Source of the DNA: Chloroflexota bacterium
GTDB taxonomy: Bacteria; Chloroflexota; Dormibacteria; Dormibacterales; Dormibacteraceae
DNA length: 64,000 bases
Assembly: GCA_005882135.1 (NCBI GenBank)
Contig: VBDR01000025.1
Span: forward strand, 1-64,000
Reading direction: 5' to 3'
Shown piece after piece: positions 15,936 to 28,085 of the stretch. The notes beneath the pieces were generated by a model. That model searched no databases and was not told the origin of the DNA. It was given only the letters and a program-made list of their open reading frames with translations. A program made the position numbers and the translations under genes. Position 1 is the first letter of the stretch, and each line of letters opens with the position of its first letter.

Positions 15936-17216
15936 TCAAGCAACGGGATCGAGCAGGGCGCCGGCGGCCAGCAGACAGTCTCGCAGCGAGCTCGCGCCCA
16001 GCGACCGCGGCGTGATTCCCGCCGCGAACGACATGGCCGCCGCGGTCCCGGCCGCCTGGCCCATCGCCATGCAGGTCGCCATCGAGCGCGCGGACGCGTG
16101 CGCATCATGAGTGGCCGAAAAGCAACGGCCGGCCACAAGCATTCCTTCGACATCGGCCGGCAGCAGGCACCGATAGGGAATCCCGTAAACGCCGCTCTCG
16201 GGCACATATGACCACCTGGTGTCGGCATGTGGGCTGTGGTCCTCGATCGGGGCCCCGCACAACGCGATCTCGTCATCGAAGCGCCGGGCCCCGAGCACAT
16301 CATCACGCGTCAGCCTGTAGTCGCCGATGACGCGCCTGCTCTCCCGCACGCCGATCGCGGGACTGGTGGCGACCAGAACGGAGTGTTCGAAGCCAGGCAC
16401 GCGGTCGCGCAGAAAACGGTGATACTCATGGACCTGGCGCCGCCCTTCGATCTCGGCTCGAGTCAGCTGCTGCGGATCGGTGGCGTCCACATTTGGAATG
16501 CGCGTCATGTGCACGGTGATGACGCCCGGATGCGGGGTGCGATGCCACGAACCTTCGAGGCGTGGTAGCCGGTACTCGCCACTCTCGGCGGCGCGCCGCA
16601 TCATCGCCCAGAGCTCCGTCTTGGGCAGCGCCGCGGCCTTGTCGATGTCCACGTTTGCCACGCGGAAGATCGTCGAGAGGGACTGCAGGTTGGGTGTGGA
16701 TCTCGCGTCCTCATATGCAACGCCGGCCATCGCGCACAGATCCGCGTCGCCCGATGCATCGACGATCACGCCCGCATCGATGAAAGACTCGCCACCCTTG
16801 TTCCAGGTGCGGATGGCCACGACGCGCTTGTCGCGTACCTCCACGCCTGTGGCCCACGTATGCAAAAGAACCTCGACCTGTGCCTCCTCAGCCATGCGTT
16901 CCCACAGCGTCTTCAGGACCTCCGGGTCGTACGTGACACCGGTTCCTGCGCCGTAAGTGTTGGGTCGCTCGAACGCAACGCCGGCTGATTTGAGCCGTTC
17001 GGCGACCTCCCAACCGATGCCGCCGACGACCCGGCGAGGCTTTTCACCGGGCGTATAGAAGGCGTAGAAGGTGTCCAGGACCGCGGTCGAAGTTCCGCCC
17101 AAGAAAGGCAGGCGGTCGAGCAGCAGAGTTCGGGCCCCGACCCGCGCCGCGCTGATCGCAGCCGAGCTCCCGGCCGACCCGCTGCCAACGACCACGACGT
17201 CAAACCGCTGGCGCAT
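15936..17216 (-). CDS. FAD-dependent oxidoreductase (FAD_oxidored/fumarate-reductase-like fold)
   Basis: About 426 residues from ATG 17216 (MRQRFDVVVVG). N-terminal FAD loop VVVVGSGSAGSSAAISAARVG, a LGGTSTAVLDTFYAFY segment typical of the FAD_oxidored family, a central VIVDASGDADLCAMAG, and the C-terminal FAD contact LPADVEGMLVAGRCFSATHDAHASARSM. Such proteins often sit in sugar or polyol catabolic clusters. The start lies inside the end of the phosphotriesterase-family gene (17 bases overlap), so the two are co-transcribed and perhaps translationally coupled. The 22 residues upstream of this ATG are not family-like. Confidence 0.87.
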   Translation of the reverse strand: MRQRFDVVVVGSGSAGSSAAISAARVGARTLLLDRLPFLGGTSTAVLDTFYAFYTPGEKPRRVVGGIGWEVAERLKSAGVAFERPNTYGAGTGVTYDPEVLKTLWERMAEEAQVEVLLHTWATGVEVRDKRVVAIRTWNKGGESFIDAGVIVDASGDADLCAMAGVAYEDARSTPNLQSLSTIFRVANVDIDKAAALPKTELWAMMRRAAESGEYRLPRLEGSWHRTPHPGVITVHMTRIPNVDATDPQQLTRAEIEGRRQVHEYHRFLRDRVPGFEHSVLVATSPAIGVRESRRVIGDYRLTRDDVLGARRFDDEIALCGAPIEDHSPHADTRWSYVPESGVYGIPYRCLLPADVEGMLVAGRCFSATHDAHASARSMATCMAMGQAAGTAAAMSFAAGITPRSLGASSLRDCLLAAGALLDPVA

Positions 17217-18189
17217 CTGGCAGCCAGGTAAAGGCATCTGCGGGGTTGTCGACCAGGATCGTCTCTTCGGCTGGAAATCCAAGTCTGCTGCGAAGCCGGG
17301 GCGCGAAGGTCTCGAGGAGGTAATTCAGTCCAGGTCCGCCGCCGTAGGCGCGAAAGTAGTCGCGCTGACCGAGGTCGAGTCCAAGCATCAGCGCCTGATG
17401 ATGCCCGCTCTCGACCATCGCATCGATGAGGTCCAGAAGCTGGCTGTCGGGGCGGTACTTGATGCGCCCCGGCGTGTCGTACTCGAGCCATACGCCACGG
17501 TCGGCCAGCTCGCGGTGAAGCTCGACGTCCGGATTGCGGTCGAGATGGGCCAGGATGATGCGATTGGCGCGAACTCCCTCGCGCATCAGCAGGTCGACGA
17601 TCTCGTGTCCGCAGGTGCCGATCTCCGTGTGCACAAGGATCGGGGCTCCCGTCTCCTGGCTGCCGGCGGCCGCGGCGACCAGGCGTCGCTCCTCCAGACG
17701 GCTGATGTGCTGGTAGGACGCGCCCGCCTTGATGACCCCTGCCAGGGCAGCGTCGAGGGGCGCTTCAACCATCCAGTCGGCCGGGTGCATGCCTTGCCGG
17801 AGATCGATCAGGATGCGCTCTGCCAGCTGCTCAACCGTTGATCCGCGCACCCAGTGGTCTGCTGGGTAGTGGGCGTCGCGGTGGTACCCGGTGGCGGCGA
17901 TGATATGCACGCCGGTCGCCTGGGCCACCGCTCGCAAGCCGGCCGGATTGCGTCCGAGACCGATGGGAGTCACCTCGACGATCGCGCGCAGCCCGCCGCT
18001 CGCCGCGTGGGTCACCTCCTCGACCGCGCGATCGATGTCATCGAAGTCCTGGCCCGGAAGCGCAGGGCTGCGAAGGAACAGGTGGTCGTGCGCGTCGGTT
18101 ATTCCGAGCTCGTCCGGCCGGATCGGACCCAGAACTGTCACGATCTCACCCACACGCGACCCGTTCACCAGCGGCACTATAAGCGCCAT
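17200..18189 (-). CDS. Phosphotriesterase-family metal-dependent hydrolase (probable lactonase)
   Basis: About 329 residues from ATG 18189. All binuclear-metal ligands of the family can be placed: H34 and H36 in TDAHDHLF, the bridging K154 in GVIKAG, H187 in ILVHTE, H215 in LAHLD, and D272 in LGLDLGQRDYF. In sugar clusters, members of this family are known to open lactones, including phosphorylated furanose lactones in mycoplasmas, rather than phosphotriesters. Here it would hydrolyse a lactone made by a neighbouring dehydrogenase (inference). Its start codon overlaps the ROK kinase start codon on the other strand, so GTG starts at residues 5, 8, 13 or 17 are also possible. Confidence 0.88.
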   Translation of the reverse strand: MALIVPLVNGSRVGEIVTVLGPIRPDELGITDAHDHLFLRSPALPGQDFDDIDRAVEEVTHAASGGLRAIVEVTPIGLGRNPAGLRAVAQATGVHIIAATGYHRDAHYPADHWVRGSTVEQLAERILIDLRQGMHPADWMVEAPLDAALAGVIKAGASYQHISRLEERRLVAAAAGSQETGAPILVHTEIGTCGHEIVDLLMREGVRANRIILAHLDRNPDVELHRELADRGVWLEYDTPGRIKYRPDSQLLDLIDAMVESGHHQALMLGLDLGQRDYFRAYGGGPGLNYLLETFAPRLRSRLGFPAEETILVDNPADAFTWLPDAPAV

Positions 18190-19105
18190 GTCTCGACACC
18201 TCGGTCTCGACCTGGGCGGGACGAACTTGAAGTGGGCCGTCGTGGAACGCGACACCCAGCCGCGTCTTCTCCAAACGGGTCGAGTAGCGACGGACACCGG
18301 CGGCGGCGAGCAGGCCGTCGTGCGGCAGCTGATCGAAGTGGCCCGCGCGGTACTTCGCGACACTCACCACATCGACTCGATCGGAGTTGGCATGCCCGGG
18401 GTCCTCGACCCGGGCTCGGGCATCACCCGCTTCATTCCCAACATTCCAGGCAACTGGGCCGGCGTGCCGGTGATCGCCGAGATGAGCAAAGCCGTCCAAT
18501 CGCCGGCGCGCCTGATCAACGACGCGCGCGCTTTCGCGCTTGCCGAGCACCGCCTGGGAGCGGGGCGCGGCGCCACGTCACTGCTTGGCATCACCCTCGG
18601 CACCGGCGTTGGAGGCGGATTGATCCTGGGCGGACAGCTTTACCTGGGTCGCGACGGGACGGCCGGCGAGTTCGGGCACCAGACGATCCTCCCGGACGGT
18701 CCGCGGTGCAACTGCGGCAACAACGGCTGCCTGGAGTCACTGGCCCGAGCCGATGCGATCGCCGCCGCTTGCGGCCAGCCAGGCGCTGAGGAATCGGTGG
18801 CGGCTGCTCGAGCCGGAGACCCTCGCGCGCAGCAAGGGCTGATCGAAGTCGGACGGTACCTTGGGATCGGCGCCAGCAACGTGGTCGTCCTGGTCGGCGT
18901 AGACCGAATCGTCGTCGGCGGCGGGATTGCGGCCGCCGGCGACATCCTGCTAGACCCGCTTCGGCAGGAGCTCGCGCGTCGCGTCCATGTCGCGGATGTC
19001 GATCGGGTCCAGGTCGTCGGCGCCGAGCTCGGCATCTGGGCCGGCGCAATCGGGGCGGCCCTGTTCGCGGCGGATCCGATCGACCCCCACTTGCATTTTG
19101 TCTAG
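18188..19105 (+). CDS. ROK-family sugar kinase
   Basis: 305 residues. N-terminal phosphate loop LGLDLGGTNLKWAVVE, catalytic Asp in LINDARAFALAE (D112), the histidine in EFGHQTI (H164), and the ROK zinc site CNCGNNGCLE at residues 174-183. There is no N-terminal DNA-binding domain, so it is a kinase and not a NagC-type repressor. It likely phosphorylates the sugar brought in by the ribose-type importer downstream. ATG 18188 follows immediately after TATAAG and four bases, with no Shine-Dalgarno sequence. The gene heads a long plus-strand operon with gntR, deoC, Gfo/Idh, SIS and ABC genes. Confidence 0.9.
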   Translation: MSRHLGLDLGGTNLKWAVVERDTQPRLLQTGRVATDTGGGEQAVVRQLIEVARAVLRDTHHIDSIGVGMPGVLDPGSGITRFIPNIPGNWAGVPVIAEMSKAVQSPARLINDARAFALAEHRLGAGRGATSLLGITLGTGVGGGLILGGQLYLGRDGTAGEFGHQTILPDGPRCNCGNNGCLESLARADAIAAACGQPGAEESVAAARAGDPRAQQGLIEVGRYLGIGASNVVVLVGVDRIVVGGGIAAAGDILLDPLRQELARRVHVADVDRVQVVGAELGIWAGAIGAALFAADPIDPHLHFV

Positions 19106-19116
19106 ATAGCTATACA
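19099..19116. promoter_or_regulatory. Palindromic operator candidate before the GntR gene
   Basis: The 18 bases TGTCTAGATAGCTATACA match their own reverse complement at 14 of 18 positions, with half-sites TGTNTAGNTA and TANCTANACA. The site overlaps the stop codon of the ROK kinase and ends 11 bases before the GntR start. HutC/GntR-type regulators bind palindromes of this kind and commonly control their own gene. TATACA within the site could also serve as a -10 box, so binding would block initiation. Confidence 0.5.
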
Positions 19117-19127
19117 TTTACCGGTCG

Positions 19128-19877
19128 ATGGTCATGGCGGATCTTTCGGGCGCGGAGACTTTCACCCCGCGCTATCGCGAGATCGAGCAGGCGATGCGGC
19201 AGCGTCTCGCAAAACTGATGCCCGGCGCCGAGTTACCGTCTGACGCCGAGCTATGCGAGGAGTTCGGGGTCAGCCGGATGACCGCCCGCCACGCGATGAA
19301 TCGCCTCGCCGGCGACGGACTGGTGTTCCGCGTGCGCGGCAGGGGCACGTTCGTGGGCGACCCGCCGACCCACCGCCGCGCCAACAGCCTGCTCAGCTTC
19401 TCCAACGAGATGCGCCGGCAGGGCAGGGTGCCGACGTCGCAGGTCCTCGGTCGAGGGCTGCGCGCCCCCACCCGAGAGGAGGCGGCGCGCCTCCGGCTCA
19501 AGAAGGGCGAGAAGGTGCTGTGGCTGAAACGGATCCGGCTCGCGGACGGCGAGCCGGTCGCGCTGGAGTCGACGCGTCTCCATCCGGCAACCGCCGTCGC
19601 GGTGCTCCGGGGCGCCCTCGAGAGGGAATCGCTCCACGCGGTGTTGGTGCGCGCCGGATTTCCGCCGACCAGTGGTCGGGCCACCATCAGCGCCGAGCCC
19701 GCGGATGCAGACGATGCGCGCTGGTTGAAGATGCGCAAGGGCGGGGCCATGCTCGTCGAACAGCGTGTGATCGTCGATCATCGAGGCCGGCCTCTCGAGT
19801 TCACAGAGTCGCGCTACCCGGCTGACCGTTACGCCCTGGACGTCGATTTTGTGGTCGAAGGCCAGGCTGCACAGTGA
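19128..19877 (+). CDS. GntR-family regulator, HutC/UTRA type
   Basis: 249 residues. Winged-helix domain at residues 15-75 (ELPSDAELCEEFGVSRMTARHAMNRLAGDGLVFRVRGRG fits the GntR helix-turn-helix and wing), joined to a UTRA ligand-binding domain (residues 90-245; LWLKRIRLADGEPVALESTRL, VEQRVIVDHRGRPLEFTESRYPADRY). UTRA regulators usually sense a sugar phosphate or similar metabolite and release DNA. Placed between the kinase and the aldolase, it is the likely repressor of this island. A palindrome sits just upstream. ATG 19128 and ATG 19134 are both possible starts. Confidence 0.9.
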   Translation: MVMADLSGAETFTPRYREIEQAMRQRLAKLMPGAELPSDAELCEEFGVSRMTARHAMNRLAGDGLVFRVRGRGTFVGDPPTHRRANSLLSFSNEMRRQGRVPTSQVLGRGLRAPTREEAARLRLKKGEKVLWLKRIRLADGEPVALESTRLHPATAVAVLRGALERESLHAVLVRAGFPPTSGRATISAEPADADDARWLKMRKGGAMLVEQRVIVDHRGRPLEFTESRYPADRYALDVDFVVEGQAAQ

Positions 19878-19887
19878 GGGGGAGTTG

Positions 19888-20649
19888 ATGGGCTCGTTTT
19901 TCGACCAGCTCAGCTACGCGGACGTCGCCAAGACGATCGACCATTCTCTTCTCAAGCCGGAGCTCGACGATTCATCGGTCGAGGCAGGCTGCGAGCTCGC
20001 CGCCCGCTATGACGTCGCGTCGGTCTGCGTTCGGCCGCGCGATGTCGAGCGCGCGCATCGCCTCCTGGCGAACACCAAGGTTGCGGTCGGCACGGTGGTC
20101 GGATTCCCGCACGGCAGCTCGCGTACCGAAACCAAGGTGTTCGAGTCGCGGCTCGCGCTGCAGAACGGCGCACGGGAGCTGGACATGGTCATCGACATCG
20201 GCGCGCTCATCTCGGGCAACGAGCTTTATGTGCGCGAGCAGATCGCCGCCGTCGTGGGGGCCGCCCACGCTGAAGGCGCCCTGGTCAAAGTCATCCTCGA
20301 GAACGCCTACCTGACCGACGAACAGAAGGCGCGCGGCTGCCAGCTAGTCGAGGCGGCGGGCGCGGACTTCGTCAAGACGTCGACCGGCTTCGCGCCGACC
20401 GGCGCTACCGTCGAAGACCTGAGGCTGATGCGCCGCTCCGTTTCGCCGCACATCGGCGTCAAGGCGGCGCATGGGATCAGGACGCTCGACGCATTGCTCG
20501 AGGTGCTCGAGATCGGCGTCACCCGGGTTGGGGCGACCCAGACCGCGGCCATGCTCGATGAGTTCAAGGCGCGAAAGGCCAGCCCTGCTCCGGCGGCAAG
20601 CCCCTCGGCTGCCTTCGACGCCACCTCCCCACTAAGTGGGGAGGAGTGA
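19888..20649 (+). CDS. deoC: Deoxyribose-phosphate aldolase family protein (DeoC/LacD)
   Basis: 253 residues from ATG 19888, behind GGGGGAG. DERA motifs: KTIDHSLLKPE (15-25), VGFPHG (71-76), ELDMVIDIG (97-105), Schiff-base K163 in VKTSTGF and the helper K192 in GVKAAHGIRT. Classical DERA has a Gly-Gly pair in that last loop, which holds the substrate phosphate; here His replaces the first Gly. The enzyme probably performs an aldol cleavage in this sugar pathway, not necessarily of deoxyribose 5-phosphate. Residues 231-253 form an Ala/Pro/Ser tail encoded partly by a DNA palindrome. The TGA overlaps the ATG of the next gene by one base. Confidence 0.87.
   Translation: MGSFFDQLSYADVAKTIDHSLLKPELDDSSVEAGCELAARYDVASVCVRPRDVERAHRLLANTKVAVGTVVGFPHGSSRTETKVFESRLALQNGARELDMVIDIGALISGNELYVREQIAAVVGAAHAEGALVKVILENAYLTDEQKARGCQLVEAAGADFVKTSTGFAPTGATVEDLRLMRRSVSPHIGVKAAHGIRTLDALLEVLEIGVTRVGATQTAAMLDEFKARKASPAPAASPSAAFDATSPLSGEE
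20624..20644. repeat. Perfect palindrome inside the deoC 3' end
   Basis: Arms CCTCCCCACT and AGTGGGGAGG flank a single A, a 10-bp inverted repeat within the last codons of deoC. The right arm supplies the GGGGAGGAG ribosome site of the next gene, so folding would hide that site. It resembles the short GC-rich palindromes that spread through some genomes as REP-like elements. No second copy was seen in this window. Confidence 0.55.
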
Positions 20650-21713
20650 TGAATCATCGGATCGTGCGCATCGGGATGCTCGGCTCGGGCTTTGTCGCCG
20701 ATTTCTACATGGATGGCTTGCGTGACGTCCCGGGTACCGAAGTGGTGGCCAACTACTCGCGGTCGGAGGAACGGGCCAACGAATTCGGGCGGCGTCACGG
20801 GGTGGCGCGGCAGTACACGACCATGGAGGACCTCTGCGCGGACCGCGAGGTCGAGATGGTGGTGATCGGCCTTCCCAACCACCTCCACCTCCCGGCTGTC
20901 CGCGCCGCCGCTGCCGAGCGCAAAGCGATCGTCTGCACCAAACCGCTGGCTCGCAACGGCCACGAGGCTGCCGACATGGTGAACCTGGCTCGCGATGCCG
21001 GTGTAATGCACGCATATGCGGAGACCGAGGTTTTCTCCCCCGATGTGATGCGCGCACGACAGATGATCGAGAGCGGTGCGATCGGCGACGTGCTCACCGT
21101 GCGCGCTCGCGAGGCCCATTCCGGCCCGCACGCCCAACACTTCTGGGACGCGGAGACCGCCGGCGGTGGCGCACTGCTGGACATGGGGTGCCACACGGTC
21201 GAGGCCGCGCGCTACTTCTTCGGCAAGGAGCACCGGATCAAAGACGTTTTCGCGTGGGGAGCCACGATGGTGCACAACGACCGGACCACAGGCGAGGACA
21301 ACGCAGTTCTACTGCTCCGCCTGGAAGACGGCCGGACATCCCTAACCGAAGCTTCGTGGACGGCGAAGGGCGGCATGGAGCTGCGCAACGAGATCTACGG
21401 CACGATGGGGCGGATCGTGACCGACACCAGCTCGACGCGCCTACGGGCCTTCATCCAGCAGCCTGCGGGCTACCTCATGGAAAAAGCGGATGCTGAGGTC
21501 GGCTGGGTGTTTCCCATCCCGGATGAGGCGCGCGTGTACGGCTACCACGAAGAGATGCGCCACTTCGTCGACTGCTTCGTGAAAGGAGAGCAGCCCCGTG
21601 AGGACTTCATCGACGGCTACATCGTCAACTCCGTGCTGGATGCCGCTTACAAGTCGATGAAGAGCGGCCACTGGGAAGCGGTGCACATCGACACCAAGGT
21701 CGCCGACGGATGA
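20649..21713 (+). CDS. Gfo/Idh/MocA-family oxidoreductase
   Basis: 354 residues from ATG 20649, with GGGGAGGAG directly upstream. N-terminal Rossmann fold RIGMLGSGFVADFYMDGL, the family lysine motif in VCTKPLARNGHEA (the EKP-like position), and the C-terminal domain with GGGALLDMGCHTVEAARYFFG carrying the usual catalytic-site D and H. Family members oxidise or reduce sugars and inositols, often giving lactones or keto-sugars. In this island it would feed the lactonase-like hydrolase (inference). It ends in an ATGA overlap with the SIS gene. Confidence 0.9.
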   Translation: MNHRIVRIGMLGSGFVADFYMDGLRDVPGTEVVANYSRSEERANEFGRRHGVARQYTTMEDLCADREVEMVVIGLPNHLHLPAVRAAAAERKAIVCTKPLARNGHEAADMVNLARDAGVMHAYAETEVFSPDVMRARQMIESGAIGDVLTVRAREAHSGPHAQHFWDAETAGGGALLDMGCHTVEAARYFFGKEHRIKDVFAWGATMVHNDRTTGEDNAVLLLRLEDGRTSLTEASWTAKGGMELRNEIYGTMGRIVTDTSSTRLRAFIQQPAGYLMEKADAEVGWVFPIPDEARVYGYHEEMRHFVDCFVKGEQPREDFIDGYIVNSVLDAAYKSMKSGHWEAVHIDTKVADG

Positions 21714-22486
21714 AAGCGGGTTCGGACTGGATCGACGCGGGGATAGCAGTCCTGGAAAGGATCCGCGACACTCAATCGCGCGCCATCGAGCGGGCGAGCC
21801 AGGTCTGCGCGGACGCGATCGGCGCCGGAGGTTTTGTCCACCTGTTCGGAACGGGACACTCTCGCATCCCGGTCGAGGAGATGTTTCCGCGCTATGGCTC
21901 GTATCCCGGGTTCCATCCCATCGTCGAGCTGTCGATGACCTTTCACACGCAGGTCGTCGGGGCCAACGGCCAGGGTCAGGCGATGTTCATCGAGCGCATG
22001 CCAGGTCTGGCCGAGGTCATACTGTCCAACTTCCATTTCGAGCCGAAGGACGCGGTGATGGTTTTCTCGGCCAGCGGCCTTGGCGCCGTAGTCGTGGAGT
22101 TCGCGCGCGGCGCCCGGAAAAGGGGACTCCCCGTGGTCGCCGTCACCTCGATCGCACAGTCGAAGGCAGGCGAAGTCGAGAAGGGGGCCGGCGCCCGCCT
22201 GATGGACGAGGCCGACATCGTCATCGACCTCTGCACGCCCGTGGGAGACGCGCTTTGCCGGCTCGACGGCTTGCCGGAGACCCCGATCGGACCGGGGTCG
22301 ACGCTCGCCGCCGTTGCTGTTGCCGATGCGATCAAAGTACGGACCGCGGAGCTGCTGCTCGCCAACGGCAAGCTGCCTCCGGTGATCACCAGCGTCGCCG
22401 AGGTGGGACGCCTGCGTTCGAATGAGCTGTTCGAGGCGGCTTACCGGGACCACGCGCGCCGGGCGGCGCGCAGCCTCGCTACTTGA
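21710..22486 (+). CDS. SIS-domain phosphosugar-binding protein (UPF0309/COG4821-like)
   Basis: 258 residues. One SIS fold: GGFVHLFGTGHSRIPVEEMFPRYG near residue 45, VMVFSASGLGAVVVEFARGARKRG, and VVAVTSIAQSKAG. The family binds or isomerises phosphosugars; this subgroup has no assigned reaction that I know of, and is found beside phosphotriesterase-family proteins in other genomes. Start ATG 21710 overlaps the Gfo/Idh stop (ATGA). The stop codon lies inside a TTGACA hexamer at 22483-22488, a possible -35 element for the importer genes, but no good -10 follows at 17 bases. Confidence 0.86.
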   Translation: MKAGSDWIDAGIAVLERIRDTQSRAIERASQVCADAIGAGGFVHLFGTGHSRIPVEEMFPRYGSYPGFHPIVELSMTFHTQVVGANGQGQAMFIERMPGLAEVILSNFHFEPKDAVMVFSASGLGAVVVEFARGARKRGLPVVAVTSIAQSKAGEVEKGAGARLMDEADIVIDLCTPVGDALCRLDGLPETPIGPGSTLAAVAVADAIKVRTAELLLANGKLPPVITSVAEVGRLRSNELFEAAYRDHARRAARSLAT

Positions 22487-22574
22487 CAGGAGGTGGAGAC
22501 TGGTGCATTTCGGGAGGCAATCGAAGGCGGTAGGGGTCCAACGGGACCGCATGGAAAACAGGAGGTGATCGTCT

Positions 22575-23648
22575 GTGATGCATCGTGAACAGCCGCTGGC
22601 GGCAGGTCGTTGGGTGGCGGCCTTGCTGGTCGCCGGGTTCGCCCTGGTCGCATGTGGCGGCAGCCCGTCGAATGGTGGCAGCACCGCCACCAAATACACA
22701 GTCGGCGTATCCAACACGCTGACCGGCAACGGTTGGCGCGAAGAGATGATCTGCTCGATCAAGGCTCAGGCCAAAGCATCGGGCGTTGTCTCCAAGGTGA
22801 TCATCGCCAACCGCACCACGGATGCGGCGGGCCAGATCGCCGACATCCGCAACCTGATCTCCTCAGGCGCCAACGTGATCGTGATCAACCCCTCCGACCG
22901 CGACGCGTTGAACTCGGTCATCAAGCAGGCGACCGACAAGGGAATCGTCGTTGTTGCGGTCGACCAGGCCGTGTCCGAGCCGAGCGCGTACGTGGTGACG
23001 AATGACCAGGTCGCATACGGGAACCTCGGCGCCGACTGGCTCGCCAAGAAGCTCGGCGGGAAGGGCAACATCATCGAGATGCGCGGCATCAACGGCGTTC
23101 CGGCCGACACGGACCGGCACCAGGGCCTGACGGCCGCGCTGGCCAAGTACCCCAACATCAAAGTGGTCAAGCAGACCTTCACCAACTGGTCGCTCGACCC
23201 CGCCGCCCAGCAGATGAAGGACATCTTCAGCTCGGGCATCAAGTTCGACGGGATCTGGACGTCAGGCATCGACTCGACCGTGGTCGACCAGTTCCAGTCC
23301 TCGAACAAACCCTTCGTGCCCATCGTGGGCGCTGACAACAACAAGTTCGTGCAGGAGCTCGCTACCTTGAAGGACAAGGGCCTGACCGGCGCCGCGGTGA
23401 CCAACCCGCCGCCGATCGGTGGCGCGGGCCTCGCGGTGGGTCTTGCAACGCTGCAGAAGTCGCACAGCTACGACCACGTGATCCACCTCACGCCGCAGGT
23501 GTGGGACAACACGACCGCTGACGGCGCCGCCAAGCTGGCGCAAACCTACGATTCGACCCTCGACCCGTACTACAGCGTCGCGTTCGACGTCAAGCCGTAC
23601 ACGACCTACACCAAGCAGGACCTGATCGCCTGCCAGGGTCCCGGCTAA
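22575..23648 (+). CDS. Sugar ABC transporter substrate-binding lipoprotein (ribose type)
   Basis: About 357 residues. The AGGAGGTGATC ribosome site is a nearly full anti-16S match; GTG 22575 is 9 bases and ATG 22578 12 bases downstream. Lipoprotein signal with lipobox LVAC (Cys27) and a Gly/Ser linker. The mature part is a type I periplasmic-binding fold of the RbsB class (VGVSNTLTGNGWREEMICSI, NLISSGANVIVINPSDRDAL, FDGIWTSGIDSTVVDQF). The strong ribosome site and the stable hairpin after the gene fit the usual over-production of binding protein relative to the membrane parts. It delivers the unknown sugar to the two permeases downstream. Confidence 0.92.
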   Translation: MMHREQPLAAGRWVAALLVAGFALVACGGSPSNGGSTATKYTVGVSNTLTGNGWREEMICSIKAQAKASGVVSKVIIANRTTDAAGQIADIRNLISSGANVIVINPSDRDALNSVIKQATDKGIVVVAVDQAVSEPSAYVVTNDQVAYGNLGADWLAKKLGGKGNIIEMRGINGVPADTDRHQGLTAALAKYPNIKVVKQTFTNWSLDPAAQQMKDIFSSGIKFDGIWTSGIDSTVVDQFQSSNKPFVPIVGADNNKFVQELATLKDKGLTGAAVTNPPPIGGAGLAVGLATLQKSHSYDHVIHLTPQVWDNTTADGAAKLAQTYDSTLDPYYSVAFDVKPYTTYTKQDLIACQGPG

Positions 23649-23661
23649 TCTGCATCGCAAC

Positions 23662-23688
23662 GGGGCGAGGGCTCTCTGCCCTCGCCCC
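23662..23688 (+). terminator. Strong hairpin between binding-protein and ATPase genes
   Basis: GGGGCGAGGGC and GCCCTCGCCCC form a perfect 11-bp stem around TCTCT. No U-run follows, so it is more likely a partial terminator or an RNA-stabilising hairpin than a full stop. It sits 13 bases after the binding-protein stop and 8 before the ATPase start, the usual place for setting unequal expression in importer operons. Confidence 0.6.
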
Positions 23689-23696
23689 ACACTCCG

Positions 23697-25217
23697 ATGG
23701 CAGCGGATCCTAAAGACACTCCAGTAACCGACTCGGCCGGCCTGCTCGAAGCGAGCGGGCTGGTCAAGCATTTCGGACCCGTCGTCGCCCTCCGTTCGGC
23801 CGACCTGCGCGTGCGCGGCGGTGAGATTCACGCGCTGATGGGGGCCAACGGAGCGGGCAAGAGCACGCTCGTCAAGATCCTGACCGGCGCGTTGACGGCT
23901 GATGCCGGAACCATCACCCTTGGCGGCCGGACAAGGTCGTTTCATACGACGTCTGAGGCGCGCAAGGCCGGACTCGTCTGCGTCTACCAGGATCCATCGC
24001 TGCTGCCCGACCTCACCGTGCTGCAGAACCTCAAGCTCACGGCGACCCCCCTGTCGACCTTCAAGAGGTACCTCGTCGAGCTTGGCCTCGAGGGGTTCGA
24101 CCTCCAGACAATGCCGCGGGAGTTGGCTCGGCCGACCCTCAGCCTGCTGGACCTCGCCCGCGCGCTGGCCATCGAGCCGCAGCTCTTGCTGCTCGATGAG
24201 ATCACAGCGTCGCTTCCTGCCGACCTGACGGTTCGCGTCTTCAACGTCGCGCGACAGCTCCGCGCGGAGGGACGCTCGGTCATATTCATCTCGCACCGCC
24301 TGGCGGAGGTGTCGGCGCTGTGCGACCGCGCCACCGTGTTGCGGGACGGCAAAACGGTGGGCGTGGTCGAGCCGGCCCAGGGCGGCGAGGAGCGCATCGT
24401 CAAGTTGATGCTCGGTCCGGTGGCCGATCTGGTGGCGGCCGAGGCCGCGTCGCCGACAGCGCCGGCAACCGGAGCTGTCGCCGTCGAGGTGCGCAACCTC
24501 AAGGCGGGCACCCTGAACGACGTCACATTCACGCTGCGCTTCGGCGAGGTGCTCGGTGTCGCCGCGCTCGAAGGTCAGGGCCAGCAAGAGCTGTTCGACT
24601 GCCTGGCCGGGGTGCGCAGGCCGGAGGCCGGCCAGATCGTGGTCGGCGGCAAGGCGCGCACTTTTCGTCACCCGGCCGACGCGATACGCGCCGGAATGGT
24701 GCTCATCCCGGCCGACCGGCTGCAGGCTCTCCTCCGTCAAAGATCCGTGCGGGAGAACATCGCGCTGCCCCTCGTCAGCCGCTTCTCGAGATGGGGTCCG
24801 ATCAATCCCCGGCGCGAGAAGCGCCAGGTCGAGAAGGCGGTCAAGCGGTTGCAGATCGACACGCGCGTGCAGTCCGAGGTTCGCCGGCTGTCCGGGGGCA
24901 ACCAGCAGAAGGTCGGCATCGCCCGCTGGCTCGTCGGTGGATTCCAGACACTGCTCTGCTTCGATCCCACGCGCGGCATCGACATCGGAACCAAGCGCCA
25001 GATCTACGGGCTGGTCAAGGAGCTGGCGGCCAATGGCTCGGCGGTCCTGCTGTTCACGTCCGAGCTGCCGGAGATCCAGCTCGCCTGCAACCGCGTCATG
25101 GTGCTTTTCGGCGGCAACCTCGTCGACGAGATGCCCGCCGCCGAAGCCGACGAGCAGGCCTTGCTTCGTGCGGCCCATGGGTTGCCTGCCGAAGCCGACG
25201 TCGAACGAGAGGCGTAG
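23697..25217 (+). CDS. Sugar ABC transporter ATPase with two nucleotide-binding domains (RbsA type)
   Basis: 506 residues, two ABC domains in tandem. Domain 1 has Walker A GANGAGKST (49-57) and Walker B LLLLDEITASL, but the LSxGQ signature region reads RPTLSLLDLARAL, so it is degenerate. Domain 2 has no proper Walker A (GVAALEGQGQQELFDCLAG), as is normal for RbsA homologues, but a good signature LSGGNQQKVGIARW and FDPTRGIDIGTK. Function: energises import with the two permeases. ATG 23697 lies just beyond the hairpin. The stop overlaps the permease start (TAGTG). Confidence 0.92.
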   Translation: MAADPKDTPVTDSAGLLEASGLVKHFGPVVALRSADLRVRGGEIHALMGANGAGKSTLVKILTGALTADAGTITLGGRTRSFHTTSEARKAGLVCVYQDPSLLPDLTVLQNLKLTATPLSTFKRYLVELGLEGFDLQTMPRELARPTLSLLDLARALAIEPQLLLLDEITASLPADLTVRVFNVARQLRAEGRSVIFISHRLAEVSALCDRATVLRDGKTVGVVEPAQGGEERIVKLMLGPVADLVAAEAASPTAPATGAVAVEVRNLKAGTLNDVTFTLRFGEVLGVAALEGQGQQELFDCLAGVRRPEAGQIVVGGKARTFRHPADAIRAGMVLIPADRLQALLRQRSVRENIALPLVSRFSRWGPINPRREKRQVEKAVKRLQIDTRVQSEVRRLSGGNQQKVGIARWLVGGFQTLLCFDPTRGIDIGTKRQIYGLVKELAANGSAVLLFTSELPEIQLACNRVMVLFGGNLVDEMPAAEADEQALLRAAHGLPAEADVEREA

Positions 25218-26212
25218 TGGCGACCACCGCCGTGGCCGAGGCGCCGCGGATGGCCGGCATGCGTTTCGGCCGGGCCGCGAGACGCTATGGCTGGACGGTC
25301 GCGGTGTACGCGCTTTTAGCGGTTCTGATGGTGACCACGATCATCATCAAGCCCGACTACGGGGCGTTCGAGTGGAACACACTCACCCTGGCGGCGCTGC
25401 CGCTCGCATTTGCGGCGGCGGCGCAGACCATGGTCGTCCTCAGCGGCGGCATCGATCTCTCGGTCGGCCCTCTGATGGCGCTGGCAAACGTGCTCGCACT
25501 GCGTGCGATGCTCGGCCACGACCTCAACTACTCGCTGGGTGTTGCACTGATCGTCCTGCTCGAGGTCACGCTGGCCGGGGCGCTGAACGGCGCCATCATC
25601 GTCCTGACTCGCGTCCCGGACATCGTCGTGACGTTGGCCACGTCCTTCATCTGGGCAGGGCTGGCTTTGCTGGTGCTGGCCAAACCCACACCGGGGATCC
25701 CGCTCGATGTCCAGAACCTGGCCCAGGGCTCGGCGCTGTCGCCGTGGGTGCCCAACGCCCTGCTTCTGCTCCTGGTGGTTCCGCTGGTCTGGATCCCGTT
25801 GCGCCGCAGCCGCGCGGGGCTGGCCATCTACGCCGTGGGCAGCGACCGTAACGCTGCCTTCCGTTCGGGCGTCAACCTCGGATTGAGCCGCGTGCTCGCC
25901 TATTCCGTGGGTGGATTCTTCGCCGCCTGCGGCGGCCTGGCGTTATCCATGACCACCGGCGTCGGCTCGCCGCTGGCGGGAACCTATTACACCCTGAGCG
26001 CGGTCTCCGCCATCGTGCTCGGCGGGGTCAGCCTGGCCGGCGGACGCGGCGGCATCCTCGGCGTGGTCGCAGCCGCTTACATCCTGTCGCTCATCCCCGC
26101 GGTGTTCATATACCTGGGCATCGACCCCAATTACGGCCAGATGATCCAGGGCGTCCTGATCGTGATCGTGGTCATGATCGGCGGCCTTGGCGCCGTGCTG
26201 AGGCGGGTATGA
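25217..26212 (+). CDS. Sugar ABC transporter permease (RbsC type), first copy
   Basis: About 331 residues from GTG 25217. Around nine hydrophobic segments; RbsC landmarks are VVLSGGIDLSVGPLMALANVLA, the cytoplasmic coupling segment LAIYAVGSDRNAAFRSGVNL and IVLGGVSLAGGRGGILGV. It forms one half of a heterodimeric pore with the next gene product; classical ribose importers use a homodimer. The frame stays open upstream over the ATPase, but that part is an arginine-rich shadow. It ends in an ATGA overlap with the second permease. Confidence 0.92.
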   Translation: MATTAVAEAPRMAGMRFGRAARRYGWTVAVYALLAVLMVTTIIIKPDYGAFEWNTLTLAALPLAFAAAAQTMVVLSGGIDLSVGPLMALANVLALRAMLGHDLNYSLGVALIVLLEVTLAGALNGAIIVLTRVPDIVVTLATSFIWAGLALLVLAKPTPGIPLDVQNLAQGSALSPWVPNALLLLLVVPLVWIPLRRSRAGLAIYAVGSDRNAAFRSGVNLGLSRVLAYSVGGFFAACGGLALSMTTGVGSPLAGTYYTLSAVSAIVLGGVSLAGGRGGILGVVAAAYILSLIPAVFIYLGIDPNYGQMIQGVLIVIVVMIGGLGAVLRRV

Positions 26213-27168
26213 GCACCAGGGCCGTGACGACGGTTCGCCTCGTGCAGCAGCATTCGATCCTGGTCCTGATCGCTCTGCTGGTTGCCCTCGCGGGCCTGAT
26301 CGAGATCATTCGCCCCGGCGCGGTCAATGCGAACTGGGTATCGAACATCCTGGAATTCGCCGCTCCTCTTGGCATCCTCGCCGCGGGCCAGACGCTGGTC
26401 GTCATCACAGGTGGGATCGACCTCTCCGTCGCGAACGTAGCCACCGCCGCCGCTTACATCATGGCCAGCCAGGCGCCATATGGAGTCACGCGGGGCATCG
26501 TTTTGGGCCTCCTCGTCGGAGTCGCGGTCGGGCTCGTCAACGGGGTGGGCGTGGCGGTCTTCAGAGTGCAGCCGCTGATCATGACGCTGGCGATGGGGCT
26601 GGTCGTGACGGGAAGCCTCAACGTGTACAGCCAGGCCGCCATCCGCAGCGTGCCAGGCGTGCCGGCGGTGATTCACGCGATGGGCTCGGCCACGGTTCTC
26701 GGCTACGTGCCTGTCAGCCTCTTCTTGTGGGCGCCGCTGGCGGCTCTGCTCATCGTTGGCCTGCGGAGCACCGGGTTCGGGCGACTGCTGTACGCGGTCG
26801 GTGACAACCTGGAGGCGACGCGCCTGGCCGGCGTTCGCGGGTGGCAGGTCTTGCTTGCGAACTACGCCGCCTGCGGATTCCTCAGCGCGGTGGCAGGTCT
26901 CGTGCTGGCGGGCACCGTCAACGCTGCGGACCTGAGCCTCGCCAACATCTTGCTGCTGCCGTCGGTCGCGGCGGTCGTGATCGGAGGGACGTCGATCTTC
27001 GGGGGAAGCGGTACCTATTCGGGAACCGTGGTGGGGGCGTTGATCCTCACCGTCCTCAACAGCGTGTTGACGCTGCTCGATGTGCCCGACGCGGTCAAGC
27101 AGATCCTCTACGGGGCGATCATCGTGCTCCTTGCCGCCGCCTACACCCGCGTTCTGAGCCCCGAGTAG
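26209..27168 (+). CDS. Sugar ABC transporter permease (RbsC type), second copy
   Basis: 319 residues from ATG 26209. Same fold as the preceding gene: VVITGGIDLSVANVATAAAYIM, LLYAVGDNLEATRLAGV as coupling segment, and VVIGGTSIFGGSGTYSGTVVGALILTVLNSVL. The two permeases are clearly diverged from each other, so this is an old heterodimer, not a recent duplication. It is the last transport gene; the shikimate-dehydrogenase-like gene starts within 30 bases. Confidence 0.92.
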   Translation: MSTRAVTTVRLVQQHSILVLIALLVALAGLIEIIRPGAVNANWVSNILEFAAPLGILAAGQTLVVITGGIDLSVANVATAAAYIMASQAPYGVTRGIVLGLLVGVAVGLVNGVGVAVFRVQPLIMTLAMGLVVTGSLNVYSQAAIRSVPGVPAVIHAMGSATVLGYVPVSLFLWAPLAALLIVGLRSTGFGRLLYAVGDNLEATRLAGVRGWQVLLANYAACGFLSAVAGLVLAGTVNAADLSLANILLLPSVAAVVIGGTSIFGGSGTYSGTVVGALILTVLNSVLTLLDVPDAVKQILYGAIIVLLAAAYTRVLSPE

Positions 27169-27197
27169 AGACCCTGGACCAATTTACTTTCATCGGG

Positions 27198-28085
27198 GTG
27201 AGCACGCAGCAGTCTGCCGCAATGCGGCTGTTTCCCGCGTGGGCGACAGAGCTTGGCCTGCGTGATGTGCGCCTGGTCGGATGCGACCTGCCGATCCACG
27301 CCGAGCGCGAGCGATATCGAGAGATCGTGGAGCAGATCAGGATCGGCAAGCGCGAGCGGGGCGCTCTGGTCACGACGCACAAGATCAGCCTGTTCGAAGC
27401 ATGTCGCGACCTGTTCGATGGGGTGGACGAATACGCAGCGCTCTGCGGAGAGACGTCGTGTCTAGCCAAGCGCAACGGGCGGCTGTACGCGTGGGCGACG
27501 GATCCGATCTCATCGGGCAGGGCCCTGGCCGAGTTTTATCCCACGGCGGGCGACAGCGAGGTGCTTTGCCTGGGCGGAGGCGGATCCGCGGTGGCCATCA
27601 CGGTGCACCTGCTCAAGCACAGCACCCGGTCACGGATCACGGTCGTCAACCGAACCGCCGGCAGGCTCGAGGCAATGCGTGCCATCCACTCCCAGCTCGC
27701 CCCGGCGGCGGAGGTCCGGTACGTCGAGAACAGTGATCCGCGCACCAACGACCGGTTGATAGGCGATCTGCCGCCCCGATCTCTGGTCATCAACGCGACC
27801 GGGATGGGCAAGGACCGGCCAGGATCACCGATCACCGACGCCGCGGTCTTTCCGGAAGGGGCTTACGCATGGGAGTTGAATTACCGAGGGAAGCTGGAAT
27901 TTCTCCACCAGGCGCTTCGCCAAGCCGGAGGCGGGGGCATGCATGTGGAGGATGGATGGCGGTACTTCATCCATGGATGGGCTGTCGTCATGGAGCATGT
28001 TTTCGAAATCGCCATCGACGGCCCGAAGTTGGATCGCCTGGCGGCGGTCTCGGAATCGGAGCGTCCCAGACGCATCCTCAGCTAG
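27198..28085 (+). CDS. Shikimate/quinate dehydrogenase-family protein
   Basis: About 295 residues from GTG 27198. AroE-type features: the catalytic lysine in ALVTTHKIS, the aspartate in WATDPISSG, glycine-rich NAD(P) loop VLCLGGGGSAVAIT and cofactor-selecting VVNRTAGR. Homologous proteins usually begin DQFTFIGV, and those residues are encoded just upstream of the GTG behind a CTG (27174) with GAGTAGAG before it, so a CTG start is likely. Position at the end of the sugar-import operon suggests oxidation of a cyclic polyol or sugar acid and not aromatic amino acid synthesis. The 109-base gap after it holds a short CCTGCG/CGCAGG repeat but no T-run. Confidence 0.83.
   Translation: MSTQQSAAMRLFPAWATELGLRDVRLVGCDLPIHAERERYREIVEQIRIGKRERGALVTTHKISLFEACRDLFDGVDEYAALCGETSCLAKRNGRLYAWATDPISSGRALAEFYPTAGDSEVLCLGGGGSAVAITVHLLKHSTRSRITVVNRTAGRLEAMRAIHSQLAPAAEVRYVENSDPRTNDRLIGDLPPRSLVINATGMGKDRPGSPITDAAVFPEGAYAWELNYRGKLEFLHQALRQAGGGGMHVEDGWRYFIHGWAVVMEHVFEIAIDGPKLDRLAAVSESERPRRILS

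What the first reader, a model, noticed from the sequence alone, without database searches (positions are those of the whole stretch)
15936..28085. Sugar-catabolic island of unknown substrate, divergently organised
Seen: a FAD oxidoreductase and a phosphotriesterase-family hydrolase on one strand, and ROK kinase, GntR/UTRA, DeoC-like aldolase, Gfo/Idh dehydrogenase, UPF0309-like SIS protein, ribose-type ABC importer and AroE-like dehydrogenase on the other, mostly overlapping. Known: phosphotriesterase-family proteins in sugar clusters can be lactonases. Inference: import, oxidation to a lactone, lactone opening, phosphorylation and aldol cleavage of a cyclic polyol or unusual sugar. I do not know a described pathway with this exact set.
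Basis: partly seen in the sequence, partly recalled or inferred. Interest (0 to 1): 0.7.

Follow-up and report, generated by a model that had tools for sequence, protein, structure and literature searches.

The report
Uncharacterised sugar-phosphate catabolic gene cluster
A bacterium carries a twelve-gene cluster, shared in part by unrelated bacterial groups, that probably imports a sugar (perhaps an N-acetylated one) and breaks it down by an undescribed route of phosphorylation, loss of water, oxidation and aldol cleavage.

Summary
Related clusters recur in Chloroflexota and Actinobacteriota and, smaller, on Bacteroidota and Deinococcota plasmids. The recurring core is a kinase, the SIS protein, the FAD enzyme, a PTE-type hydrolase and a dehydrogenase, often with KDPG aldolase (Eda). 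A cyclic polyol is not favoured. The SIS protein's nearest relative of known activity in the PDB search is NagS, a GlcNAc-6-phosphate dehydratase; all four residues essential there are kept. NagA stands inside the cluster in the window's own genus (L062, L063) and lies near SIS genes more often than chance (12 pairs against 0.29 expected; 4 are cluster-type). I propose import, 6-phosphorylation, SIS dehydration, oxidation, lactone opening, then aldolase cleavage to glyceraldehyde-3-P. Against the amino-sugar version: three distant NagS homologues failed on GlcNAc-6-P, two helper residues are not kept, and the genome has NagA and a NagB-II-like gene elsewhere. The substrate is unproven. My paper searches listed no pathway with this set.

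The parts
15936..17282 (-). FAD-dependent oxidoreductase (PF12831); likely start ATG 17216; proposed oxidation of a sugar-phosphate lactol
   Evidence: Pfam 386.7 bits; 49-85% identical copies in 35 of 80 related loci; AlphaFold pLDDT 85.6, only distant fold matches, top-ranked TM 0.48/0.53
17200..18168 (-). PTE-family hydrolase, proposed phospho-sugar lactonase; GTG start at the position of the start codon in relatives
   Evidence: Pfam 157.7 bits, nearest NCBIfam phospho-furanose lactonase below cut-off; best PDB sequence match 3msr/3ovg; start from alignment
18176..18183 (.). shared TATA core between the divergent PTE and ROK genes, possibly back-to-back -10 elements
   Evidence: GGCACTATAA identical in 7 of 7 aligned loci, window included, while the flanks vary; L062 and L063 were not in that alignment; sequence
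18188..19105 (+). ROK-family sugar kinase
   Evidence: Pfam 195.1 bits; ROK motif GEFGH...CNCGNNGCLE present (motif recalled)
19128..19877 (+). GntR/UTRA (HutC-type) transcription regulator
   Evidence: Pfam UTRA 122.1 and GntR 67.9 bits
19888..20649 (+). DeoC-like class I aldolase
   Evidence: TIGR00126 225.9 bits, cut-off 117.3; FVKTSTGF and ELDM motifs present; GVKAAHGIR or GIKAAHGIR also in L059-L063 where PDB relatives have KASGG
20646..21713 (+). Gfo/Idh/MocA dehydrogenase (family F8)
   Evidence: Pfam; below inositol dehydrogenase cut-off
21710..22486 (+). SIS (UPF0309) protein, proposed sugar-6-phosphate dehydratase
   Evidence: NF002805 247.2 bits, cut-off 135; PDB relatives 9eol (SCO4393, NagS) and 3cvj; H53, R64, E94, D179 of NagS conserved in 17 of 17 aligned SIS proteins
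22575..23648 (+). sugar-binding lipoprotein of a ribose-type importer
   Evidence: Peripla_BP_4 184.4 bits
23697..25217 (+). ABC importer double ATPase
   Evidence: ABC_tran, two stretches
25217..26212 (+). ABC importer permease 1
   Evidence: open frame, start seen, similar proteins (27-92% identity) in 44 of 80 related loci
26209..27168 (+). ABC importer permease 2
   Evidence: BPD_transp_2 98.2 bits
27174..28085 (+). AroE-like dehydrogenase (start uncertain, CTG 27174 or GTG 27198), proposed stand-in for the SDR of other clusters
   Evidence: shikimate dehydrogenase/5-ketofructose reductase relatives by sequence and fold; present in 9 of 80 loci

Best explanation
A catabolic cluster for one imported sugar, most likely an N-acetylhexosamine or a related aldose. 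Proposed route: (1) import by the ribose-type ABC transporter; (2) 6-phosphorylation by the ROK kinase; (3) the SIS protein, a NagS-like dehydratase, removes water across C2-C3, giving a 3-deoxy-2-ulose-6-phosphate or its enamide furanose; (4) where the sugar is N-acetylated, NagA (inside the cluster in L062/L063, elsewhere in the window's genome) removes the acetyl group; (5) the FAD enzyme with an AroE-like, SDR or Gfo dehydrogenase oxidises C1 to a lactone and the PTE enzyme opens it; (6) a class I aldolase (Eda in many clusters, perhaps the DeoC-like enzyme in the window) cleaves the shared skeleton R-CO-CH2-CHOH-CHOH-CH2OP, yielding glyceraldehyde-3-P plus pyruvate or an analogue. R is H in deoxyribose-5-P (DeoC), COOH in KDPG (Eda) and CHO in the proposed SIS product. 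Shown here: gene content, conservation and co-location. Inferred: every reaction, their order and the substrate.
For: SIS is 33% identical to NagS and keeps all four residues essential there (PMC12680351 section 13). NagA lies within 10 kb of SIS in 12 pairs, 11 of 41 SIS genomes, 0.29 pairs expected; 4 against 0.12 for cluster-type SIS. NagA sits between PTE and ROK in L062 and L063, over its cut-off in L063, downstream of ROK in 9 further loci and at the end of L085. Eda is in 17 of 80 loci, 12 of these with FAD; within 5 kb of FAD at 5 of the 12 FAD places compared; on one strand in a row with FAD, PTE, SDR, DeoC and ROK in L120 and L123. Deinococcus aetherius has FGGY kinase-SDR-FAD-PTE-Eda-SIS in a row. 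All 25 loci with PTE by tblastn also have FAD. The NagS paper shows NagA deacetylating the NagS product and calls the resulting compound 3 similar to ribose-5P, a skeleton that would fit DeoC/Eda chemistry.
Against: In the NagS paper three homologues of 26-36% identity had no or negligible activity on GlcNAc-6-P, and this SIS is in that range; Ser91 is not matched (a gap, Met in the alignment) and Asn228 is Ala, whose alanine mutants in NagS lost 40- and 208-fold kcat/Km. The window's genome has NagA and a NagB-II-like gene elsewhere, and 7 of 12 family members without the cluster also have NagA, so ordinary GlcNAc may already be served. NagA was found in only 12 of 80 loci and Eda in only 17 (37 of the 80 loci are under 15 kb), and neither is in the window cluster. 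Eight of the 12 NagA pairs involve SIS proteins of under 40% identity. Two aldolases, several Gfo/Idh enzymes and an AP2Ec isomerase in relatives are not all explained. An enolase-superfamily gene, a possible ordinary sugar-acid dehydratase, lies on the other strand near the Arthrobacter pascens cluster. The FAD enzyme's role is a guess: no close fold match.
Confidence: 0.38

Rival explanations
1. One reading: an unusual free sugar or cyclic polyol is oxidised to a lactone by the FAD and Gfo/Idh enzymes, opened by PTE, phosphorylated by ROK, isomerised by SIS and cleaved by the DeoC-like aldolase.
For: Same enzymes in a different order; weak likeness of the Gfo/Idh protein to inositol, levoglucosan and xylose dehydrogenases; extra Gfo and AP2Ec genes in relatives.
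Against: Does not explain NagA in some clusters or the NagS-like active site. The Gfo protein is far below the inositol dehydrogenase cut-off.
Confidence: 0.2
2. A sugar-6-phosphate route where SIS is a plain aldose-ketose isomerase or epimerase for a non-acetylated rare hexose; the FAD/PTE/Eda genes act on an oxidised side branch of the same sugar.
For: NCBIfam names the family a sugar isomerase domain protein; in Agrobacterium vitis a 38% identical SIS sits with a nucleoside phosphorylase and a carbohydrate kinase, so the family may have several substrates; NagA was not found in 68 of 80 loci, many of them short.
Against: The SIS relatives of known chemistry that the searches gave are NagS and, weakly, MurQ, both elimination enzymes, besides a weak match to phosphoheptose isomerase; the NagS essential residues are kept.
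Confidence: 0.25
3. A 2-deoxyribose or deoxynucleoside salvage operon: import, ROK phosphorylation, DeoC cleavage to acetaldehyde and glyceraldehyde-3-P.
For: The DeoC protein passes the deoxyribose-phosphate aldolase cut-off.
Against: None of the twelve genes matched a deoxyribokinase or nucleoside phosphorylase family; DeoC is missing from clusters that keep FAD, PTE, ROK, Gfo and SIS (L064-L067); SIS, FAD, PTE and Eda would have no role.
Confidence: 0.07
4. A muramic-acid route: SIS acts like MurQ and cleaves the lactyl ether of an N-acetylmuramic acid 6-phosphate-like substrate.
For: The NagS paper places NagS next to MurQ, and the MurQ family model matches this SIS weakly, 19.2 bits.
Against: No MurNAc-specific kinase or transporter was recognised among the twelve genes (not searched for elsewhere); Eda, PTE and FAD are not needed for that route.
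Confidence: 0.05

Closest known systems
NagS-NagA route of Streptomyces (GlcNAc-6-P to 6P-chromogen I to an imine; PMC12680351: abstract, passages and sections 10, 13, 14 seen)
   Same: A related SIS protein with the same four essential residues; NagA in the same gene neighbourhood in some relatives; a product skeleton that the aldolases here could use.
   Different: The paper presents it as a toxicity route limited to Streptomycetaceae; here a kinase, oxidoreductases, lactonase-like enzyme and aldolase surround the SIS gene; only 33% identity, Ser91 and Asn228 not kept.
Entner-Doudoroff and De Ley-Doudoroff pathways (recalled)
   Same: Oxidation, lactone hydrolysis, a kinase, a dehydration step and, in many related clusters, a KDPG-type aldolase.
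   Different: No 6-phosphogluconate dehydratase or enolase-type sugar-acid dehydratase among the twelve window genes, though an enolase-superfamily gene lies near the Arthrobacter pascens cluster; an SIS protein would take the dehydratase role before oxidation; Eda is not in the window cluster.
Canonical GlcNAc catabolism, NagA-NagB or NagB-II (recalled; genes located)
   Same: ROK kinase, GntR/UTRA regulator and, in relatives, NagA.
   Different: No deaminase in the window cluster; the genome has a separate NagA and NagB-II-like pair about 74 kb away.
Phospho-furanose lactonases of the PTE family (NF045706); PDB 3msr/3ovg
   Same: Nearest curated family and best PDB sequence match of the window's PTE protein.
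   Different: Score 166.6 against a cut-off of 630 bits, so not a member by that test.

Membership tests
NagS (GlcNAc-6-P dehydratase) | residues H53, R64, E94, D179, essential in NagS | tested here: met
   17 of 17 aligned SIS proteins incl. the window's; essentiality
NagS (GlcNAc-6-P dehydratase) | Ser91 and Asn228, important for catalysis | tested here: not met
   Ser91 unmatched (gap, Met) and Ala for Asn228 in the window protein
NagS (GlcNAc-6-P dehydratase) | 58.7% or more identity, as among Streptomycetaceae NagS | tested here: not met
   33%; threshold from passages
NagS (GlcNAc-6-P dehydratase) | dehydration of GlcNAc-6-P | not testable with these tools
   needs an enzyme assay; homologues at 26-36% identity failed
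sugar isomerase domain-containing (UPF0309, NF002805) | curated score cut-off | tested here: met
   247.2 against 135 bits
Deoxyribose-phosphate aldolase (TIGR00126) | curated score cut-off | tested here: met
   225.9 against 117.3 bits
Deoxyribose-phosphate aldolase (TIGR00126) | acts on 2-deoxyribose-5-phosphate | not testable with these tools
   motifs kept except AHG for SGG (motif roles recalled)
Phospho-furanose lactonase (NF045706) | curated score cut-off | tested here: not met
   166.6 against 630 bits
Entner-Doudoroff-type pathway | KDPG aldolase in the cluster | tested here: not met
   none among the window genes; two Eda-like genes on other contigs, one over the cut-off; in 17 of 80 related loci
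Canonical GlcNAc pathway | NagA and NagB or NagB-II in the cluster | tested here: not met
   in the window's genome a NagA and a NagB-II-like gene (below its cut-off) lie at C75:102367 and C75:104318; a weak NagB match, 45 bits, on C13
Inositol catabolism (IolG) | inositol 2-dehydrogenase cut-off | tested here: not met
   143.1 against 355 bits

The most novel reading that the evidence does not exclude
A previously undescribed dehydrative pathway for amino-sugar (N-acetylhexosamine) breakdown, whose core genes occur in four phyla: kinase, SIS-type 2,3-dehydratase, NagA, C1 oxidation, PTE lactonase and KDPG or DeoC-type aldolase. It would turn the NagS side reaction known as a toxicity route in Streptomyces into a complete catabolic pathway that ends in pyruvate and glyceraldehyde-3-phosphate.
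Probability: 0.27. Interest if true: 0.75.

Novelty: new variant of a known kind. Interest (0 to 1): 0.58.

Why it matters
The core set recurs in Chloroflexota and Actinobacteriota, with smaller versions on plasmids of Bacteroidota and Deinococcota, yet none of my paper searches listed a description of it. If the proposal holds, it would explain what a widespread group of UPF0309 SIS proteins, PF12831 FAD enzymes and PTE-family 'aryldialkylphosphatases' do together, and would add a new entry route for amino sugars or rare sugars into central metabolism. The steps are testable with purified enzymes from named carriers such as Arthrobacter pascens or Deinococcus aetherius.

Tried and rejected
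Tried: fold search of the FAD enzyme, only distant GGR/PHBH-like flavoproteins, no functional clue. Paper searches for parts of the set, for UPF0309 and for phospho-sugar lactonases listed no pathway with this set; I saw only listings and abstract starts, and lists were cut (12 of 325, 12 of 36, 10 of 38). Searches gave only the NagS paper. A scan with a DasR-like operator (pattern recalled) gave 29 loose matches in the window against 14.8 expected, a number reached by 0 of 100 shuffles; the only one near the divergent promoter, at 18202 with 3 mismatches, lies inside ROK, so no operator is claimed and the excess is unexplained.

Considered and rejected: that DeoC and Eda simply replace each other; both are in 8 of 80 loci (L072, L082, L100, L115, L116, L120, L123, L135). 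That the cluster is the genome's only GlcNAc route: NagA and a NagB-II-like gene lie elsewhere. That the conserved GGCACTATAA element is the GntR operator: it stays in L064-L067, where no GntR gene was found within the cluster (L064 has a GntR-type match about 8 kb further on).

Limits: SIS is the anchor, so its count is 80 of 80 by construction, and 80 is the best part of 169 relatives found. The HMM tallies use profiles built from the same loci, ORFs of 110 aa or more and one best profile per ORF; 20 of 80 loci are under 10 kb and 37 under 15 kb, so counts are lower bounds (PTE 22 there, 25 by tblastn; DeoC 45 and 49), while ROK and GntR counts may include distant family members. Several loci are the same contigs as loci. 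Eda, NagB-II, DeoC and NagB were searched in 32 chosen genomes only.
Full report
What is there. The window (contig C75 of a 2.7 Mb, 91-contig genome) holds twelve genes at 15936-28085. On the minus strand: FAD oxidoreductase and PTE-family hydrolase. On the plus strand: ROK kinase, GntR/UTRA regulator, DeoC-like aldolase, Gfo/Idh dehydrogenase, SIS (UPF0309) protein, binding lipoprotein, ABC ATPase, two permeases, AroE-like dehydrogenase. All twelve frames are free of internal stops. Neighbours are a GMC-type oxidoreductase upstream, and a PALP enzyme and an Oxidored_FMN protein downstream; I did not trace them in relatives.

Conservation. A scan of the species genome collection with a profile of the SIS protein found 169 relatives, of which the best 80 were kept: mostly Chloroflexi and Actinobacteria MAGs, plus Amycolatopsis, Planotetraspora, Fodinicola, Microcella and Arthrobacter strains; single MAGs are labelled Bacteroidetes (L125) and Acidobacteria (L136). 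The nearest (L059-L067, 80-91% SIS identity) are 'Chloroflexi bacterium' MAGs; L070 (80%) is named Dormibacteraeota. Counts by HMM over the 80 loci: ROK 60, binding protein 53, DeoC 45, GntR 38, SDR 38, FAD 35, AP2Ec isomerase 32, PTE 22, Eda 17, NagA 12, AroE 9, NagB-II 6; Gfo families 38, 28 and 26. By tblastn 25 loci have PTE and all 25 also have FAD. These are lower bounds, since 37 of the 80 loci are under 15 kb.

Inherited as a unit. Among 301 genomes of the phylum, 41 have a SIS relative (E 1e-15) and 36 a FAD relative (E 1e-40). In the window's family both genes are in the same 5 of 17 listed genomes and found in none of the other 12; within the genus 4 of 8. G103, of the same class, has the SIS and importer genes on a 4.3 kb contig but no FAD match. 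Of 12 FAD places with 54% identity or more, 9 lie within 16 kb of SIS; the other three are G261 (FAD and SIS on different contigs, SIS at a contig end), G292 (FAD near Eda on another contig) and G062 (partial). A stripped-down form without importer, GntR and DeoC (FAD, PTE, ROK, Gfo, SIS, AroE) is seen in L064-L067.

A wider core. Plasmid records show much of the same core in other phyla, by their annotation: Haliscomenobacter (SDR, SIS, FAD, 'aryldialkylphosphatase', Gfo; no kinase annotated beside them), Spirosoma (GntR, SDR, ROK, SIS, isomerase/epimerase, FAD, 'aryldialkylphosphatase', two Gfo), Persicobacter twice (the second with a creatininase-family hydrolase where PTE would be, and Eda), Deinococcus aetherius (FGGY kinase, SDR, FAD, PTE, Eda, SIS). 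In Arthrobacter pascens the row is ROK-SIS-SDR-FAD-PTE-Eda. In the window's family the AroE-like protein, which ends the operon and directly follows SIS in L064-L067, may do the SDR's job (inference): AroE is in 9 of 80 loci, and only L065 and L067 also have an SDR match, some 3 kb beyond FAD.

What the SIS protein suggests. Its PDB relatives are SCO4393 (9eol), a putative phosphoheptose isomerase (3cvj) and, weakly, phosphoheptose isomerase 2i22. SCO4393 is NagS, a GlcNAc-6-P dehydratase (PMC12680351; abstract, passages and sections 10, 13, 14 seen). The four NagS residues whose alanine mutants were inactive (H53, R64, E94, D179) are present in 17 of 17 aligned SIS proteins including the window's; Ser91 is unmatched and Asn228 is Ala in the window protein; the phosphate-binding Ser121 is Gly in 4 of 17. 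So the SIS protein probably does the same kind of elimination chemistry on a somewhat different substrate. The paper reports that homologues of 25.7-35.7% identity from Clostridium, Paenibacillus and Acidothermus had negligible or no activity on GlcNAc-6-P. The window's protein (33%) is in that range, so GlcNAc-6-P itself may well not be the substrate.

The NagA link. NagA (TIGR00221) occurs in 139 of 301 genomes, so its presence alone says little. Its position does: 12 SIS-NagA pairs within 10 kb in 11 of 41 SIS genomes, against 0.29 expected under random placement. For the cluster-type SIS alone it is 4 against 0.12; the other 8 pairs involve SIS proteins of under 40% identity. In L062 and L063, near relatives of the window (L063 is the contig of G268, same genus), NagA stands between PTE and ROK (275 bits against a cut-off of 226 in L063). 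In nine other Chloroflexi-type loci it lies downstream of ROK, with GntR detected between them in five (L072, L075, L079, L107, L112) and in L093 as well, so six. In Martelella a 36% identical SIS sits with nagA, ROK and GntR. Against this, the window's own NagA lies outside the cluster beside a NagB-II-like gene (C75:102367 and 104318), and 7 of 12 family members without the cluster have NagA too.

Proposed mechanism. Import; 6-phosphorylation (ROK); SIS elimination of water across C2-C3; deacetylation by NagA if the sugar is N-acetylated; oxidation at C1 by the FAD enzyme and/or the NAD(P) dehydrogenase; opening of the 1,4-lactone by PTE; aldol cleavage. The chemical thread is that DeoC and Eda act on the same skeleton, R-CO-CH2-CHOH-CHOH-CH2OP, with R = H or COOH (textbook knowledge); a SIS dehydratase would make the R = CHO member, and C1 oxidation the COOH member. 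This would explain why DeoC, Eda, SIS, a lactonase and oxidoreductases travel together, including the row FAD-PTE-Eda-SDR-DeoC-ROK in L120 and L123. None of these reactions has been shown for these proteins. The extra Gfo/AP2Ec pair of many relatives and the exact job of the FAD enzyme remain unexplained, and an enolase-superfamily gene near the Arthrobacter pascens cluster could be a conventional dehydratase. In Agrobacterium vitis a 38% identical SIS sits with a nucleoside phosphorylase, a carbohydrate kinase and an aldehyde dehydrogenase, so the SIS family may well serve more than one substrate.

Literature. Searches (open-access papers only; listings, several cut) showed no description of this set; only the NagS paper bears on it. 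This is not proof that none exists.

Verdict. A real, widespread and, as far as these searches show, undescribed catabolic module; a new combination of known enzyme families rather than a new kind of system. The amino-sugar reading is the boldest one consistent with the evidence, at about one chance in four.

Noticed in passing
window 18168-18190: The PTE and ROK start codons are only about 20 bp apart, and GGCACTATAA between them is identical in 7 of 7 aligned family loci (L062 and L063 not aligned). Back-to-back TATAAG/TATAGT within a few nt of both start codons may be a bidirectional promoter making leaderless or nearly leaderless mRNAs.
   Followed up: partly
L049, L051-L055, L125, L130, L132: A MetE-like methionine-synthase-family gene (F30) stands beside or near the SIS gene in a second group of loci.
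   Followed up: no
L142 8922-9689: Agrobacterium vitis plasmid: a 38% identical SIS gene in a row with a BMP-type importer, a nucleoside phosphorylase, a carbohydrate kinase and an aldehyde dehydrogenase, hinting at a pentose-phosphate substrate for that branch.
   Followed up: no
L065 3130-5663; F39 also in L066, L067, L113, L115: A DUF993 protein (PF06187, 592 bits) next to a CoA-transferase family III gene lies beside the stripped-down cluster in L065.
   Followed up: no
L144 14404-15093: In the second Persicobacter cluster a creatininase-family protein stands where PTE is found elsewhere, a possible non-homologous replacement of the hydrolase step.
   Followed up: partly
window, whole: A 12-base DasR-like palindrome (recalled) has 29 matches with up to 3 mismatches against 14.8 expected; 0 of 100 shuffles reached 29. 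Cause unknown.
   Followed up: no
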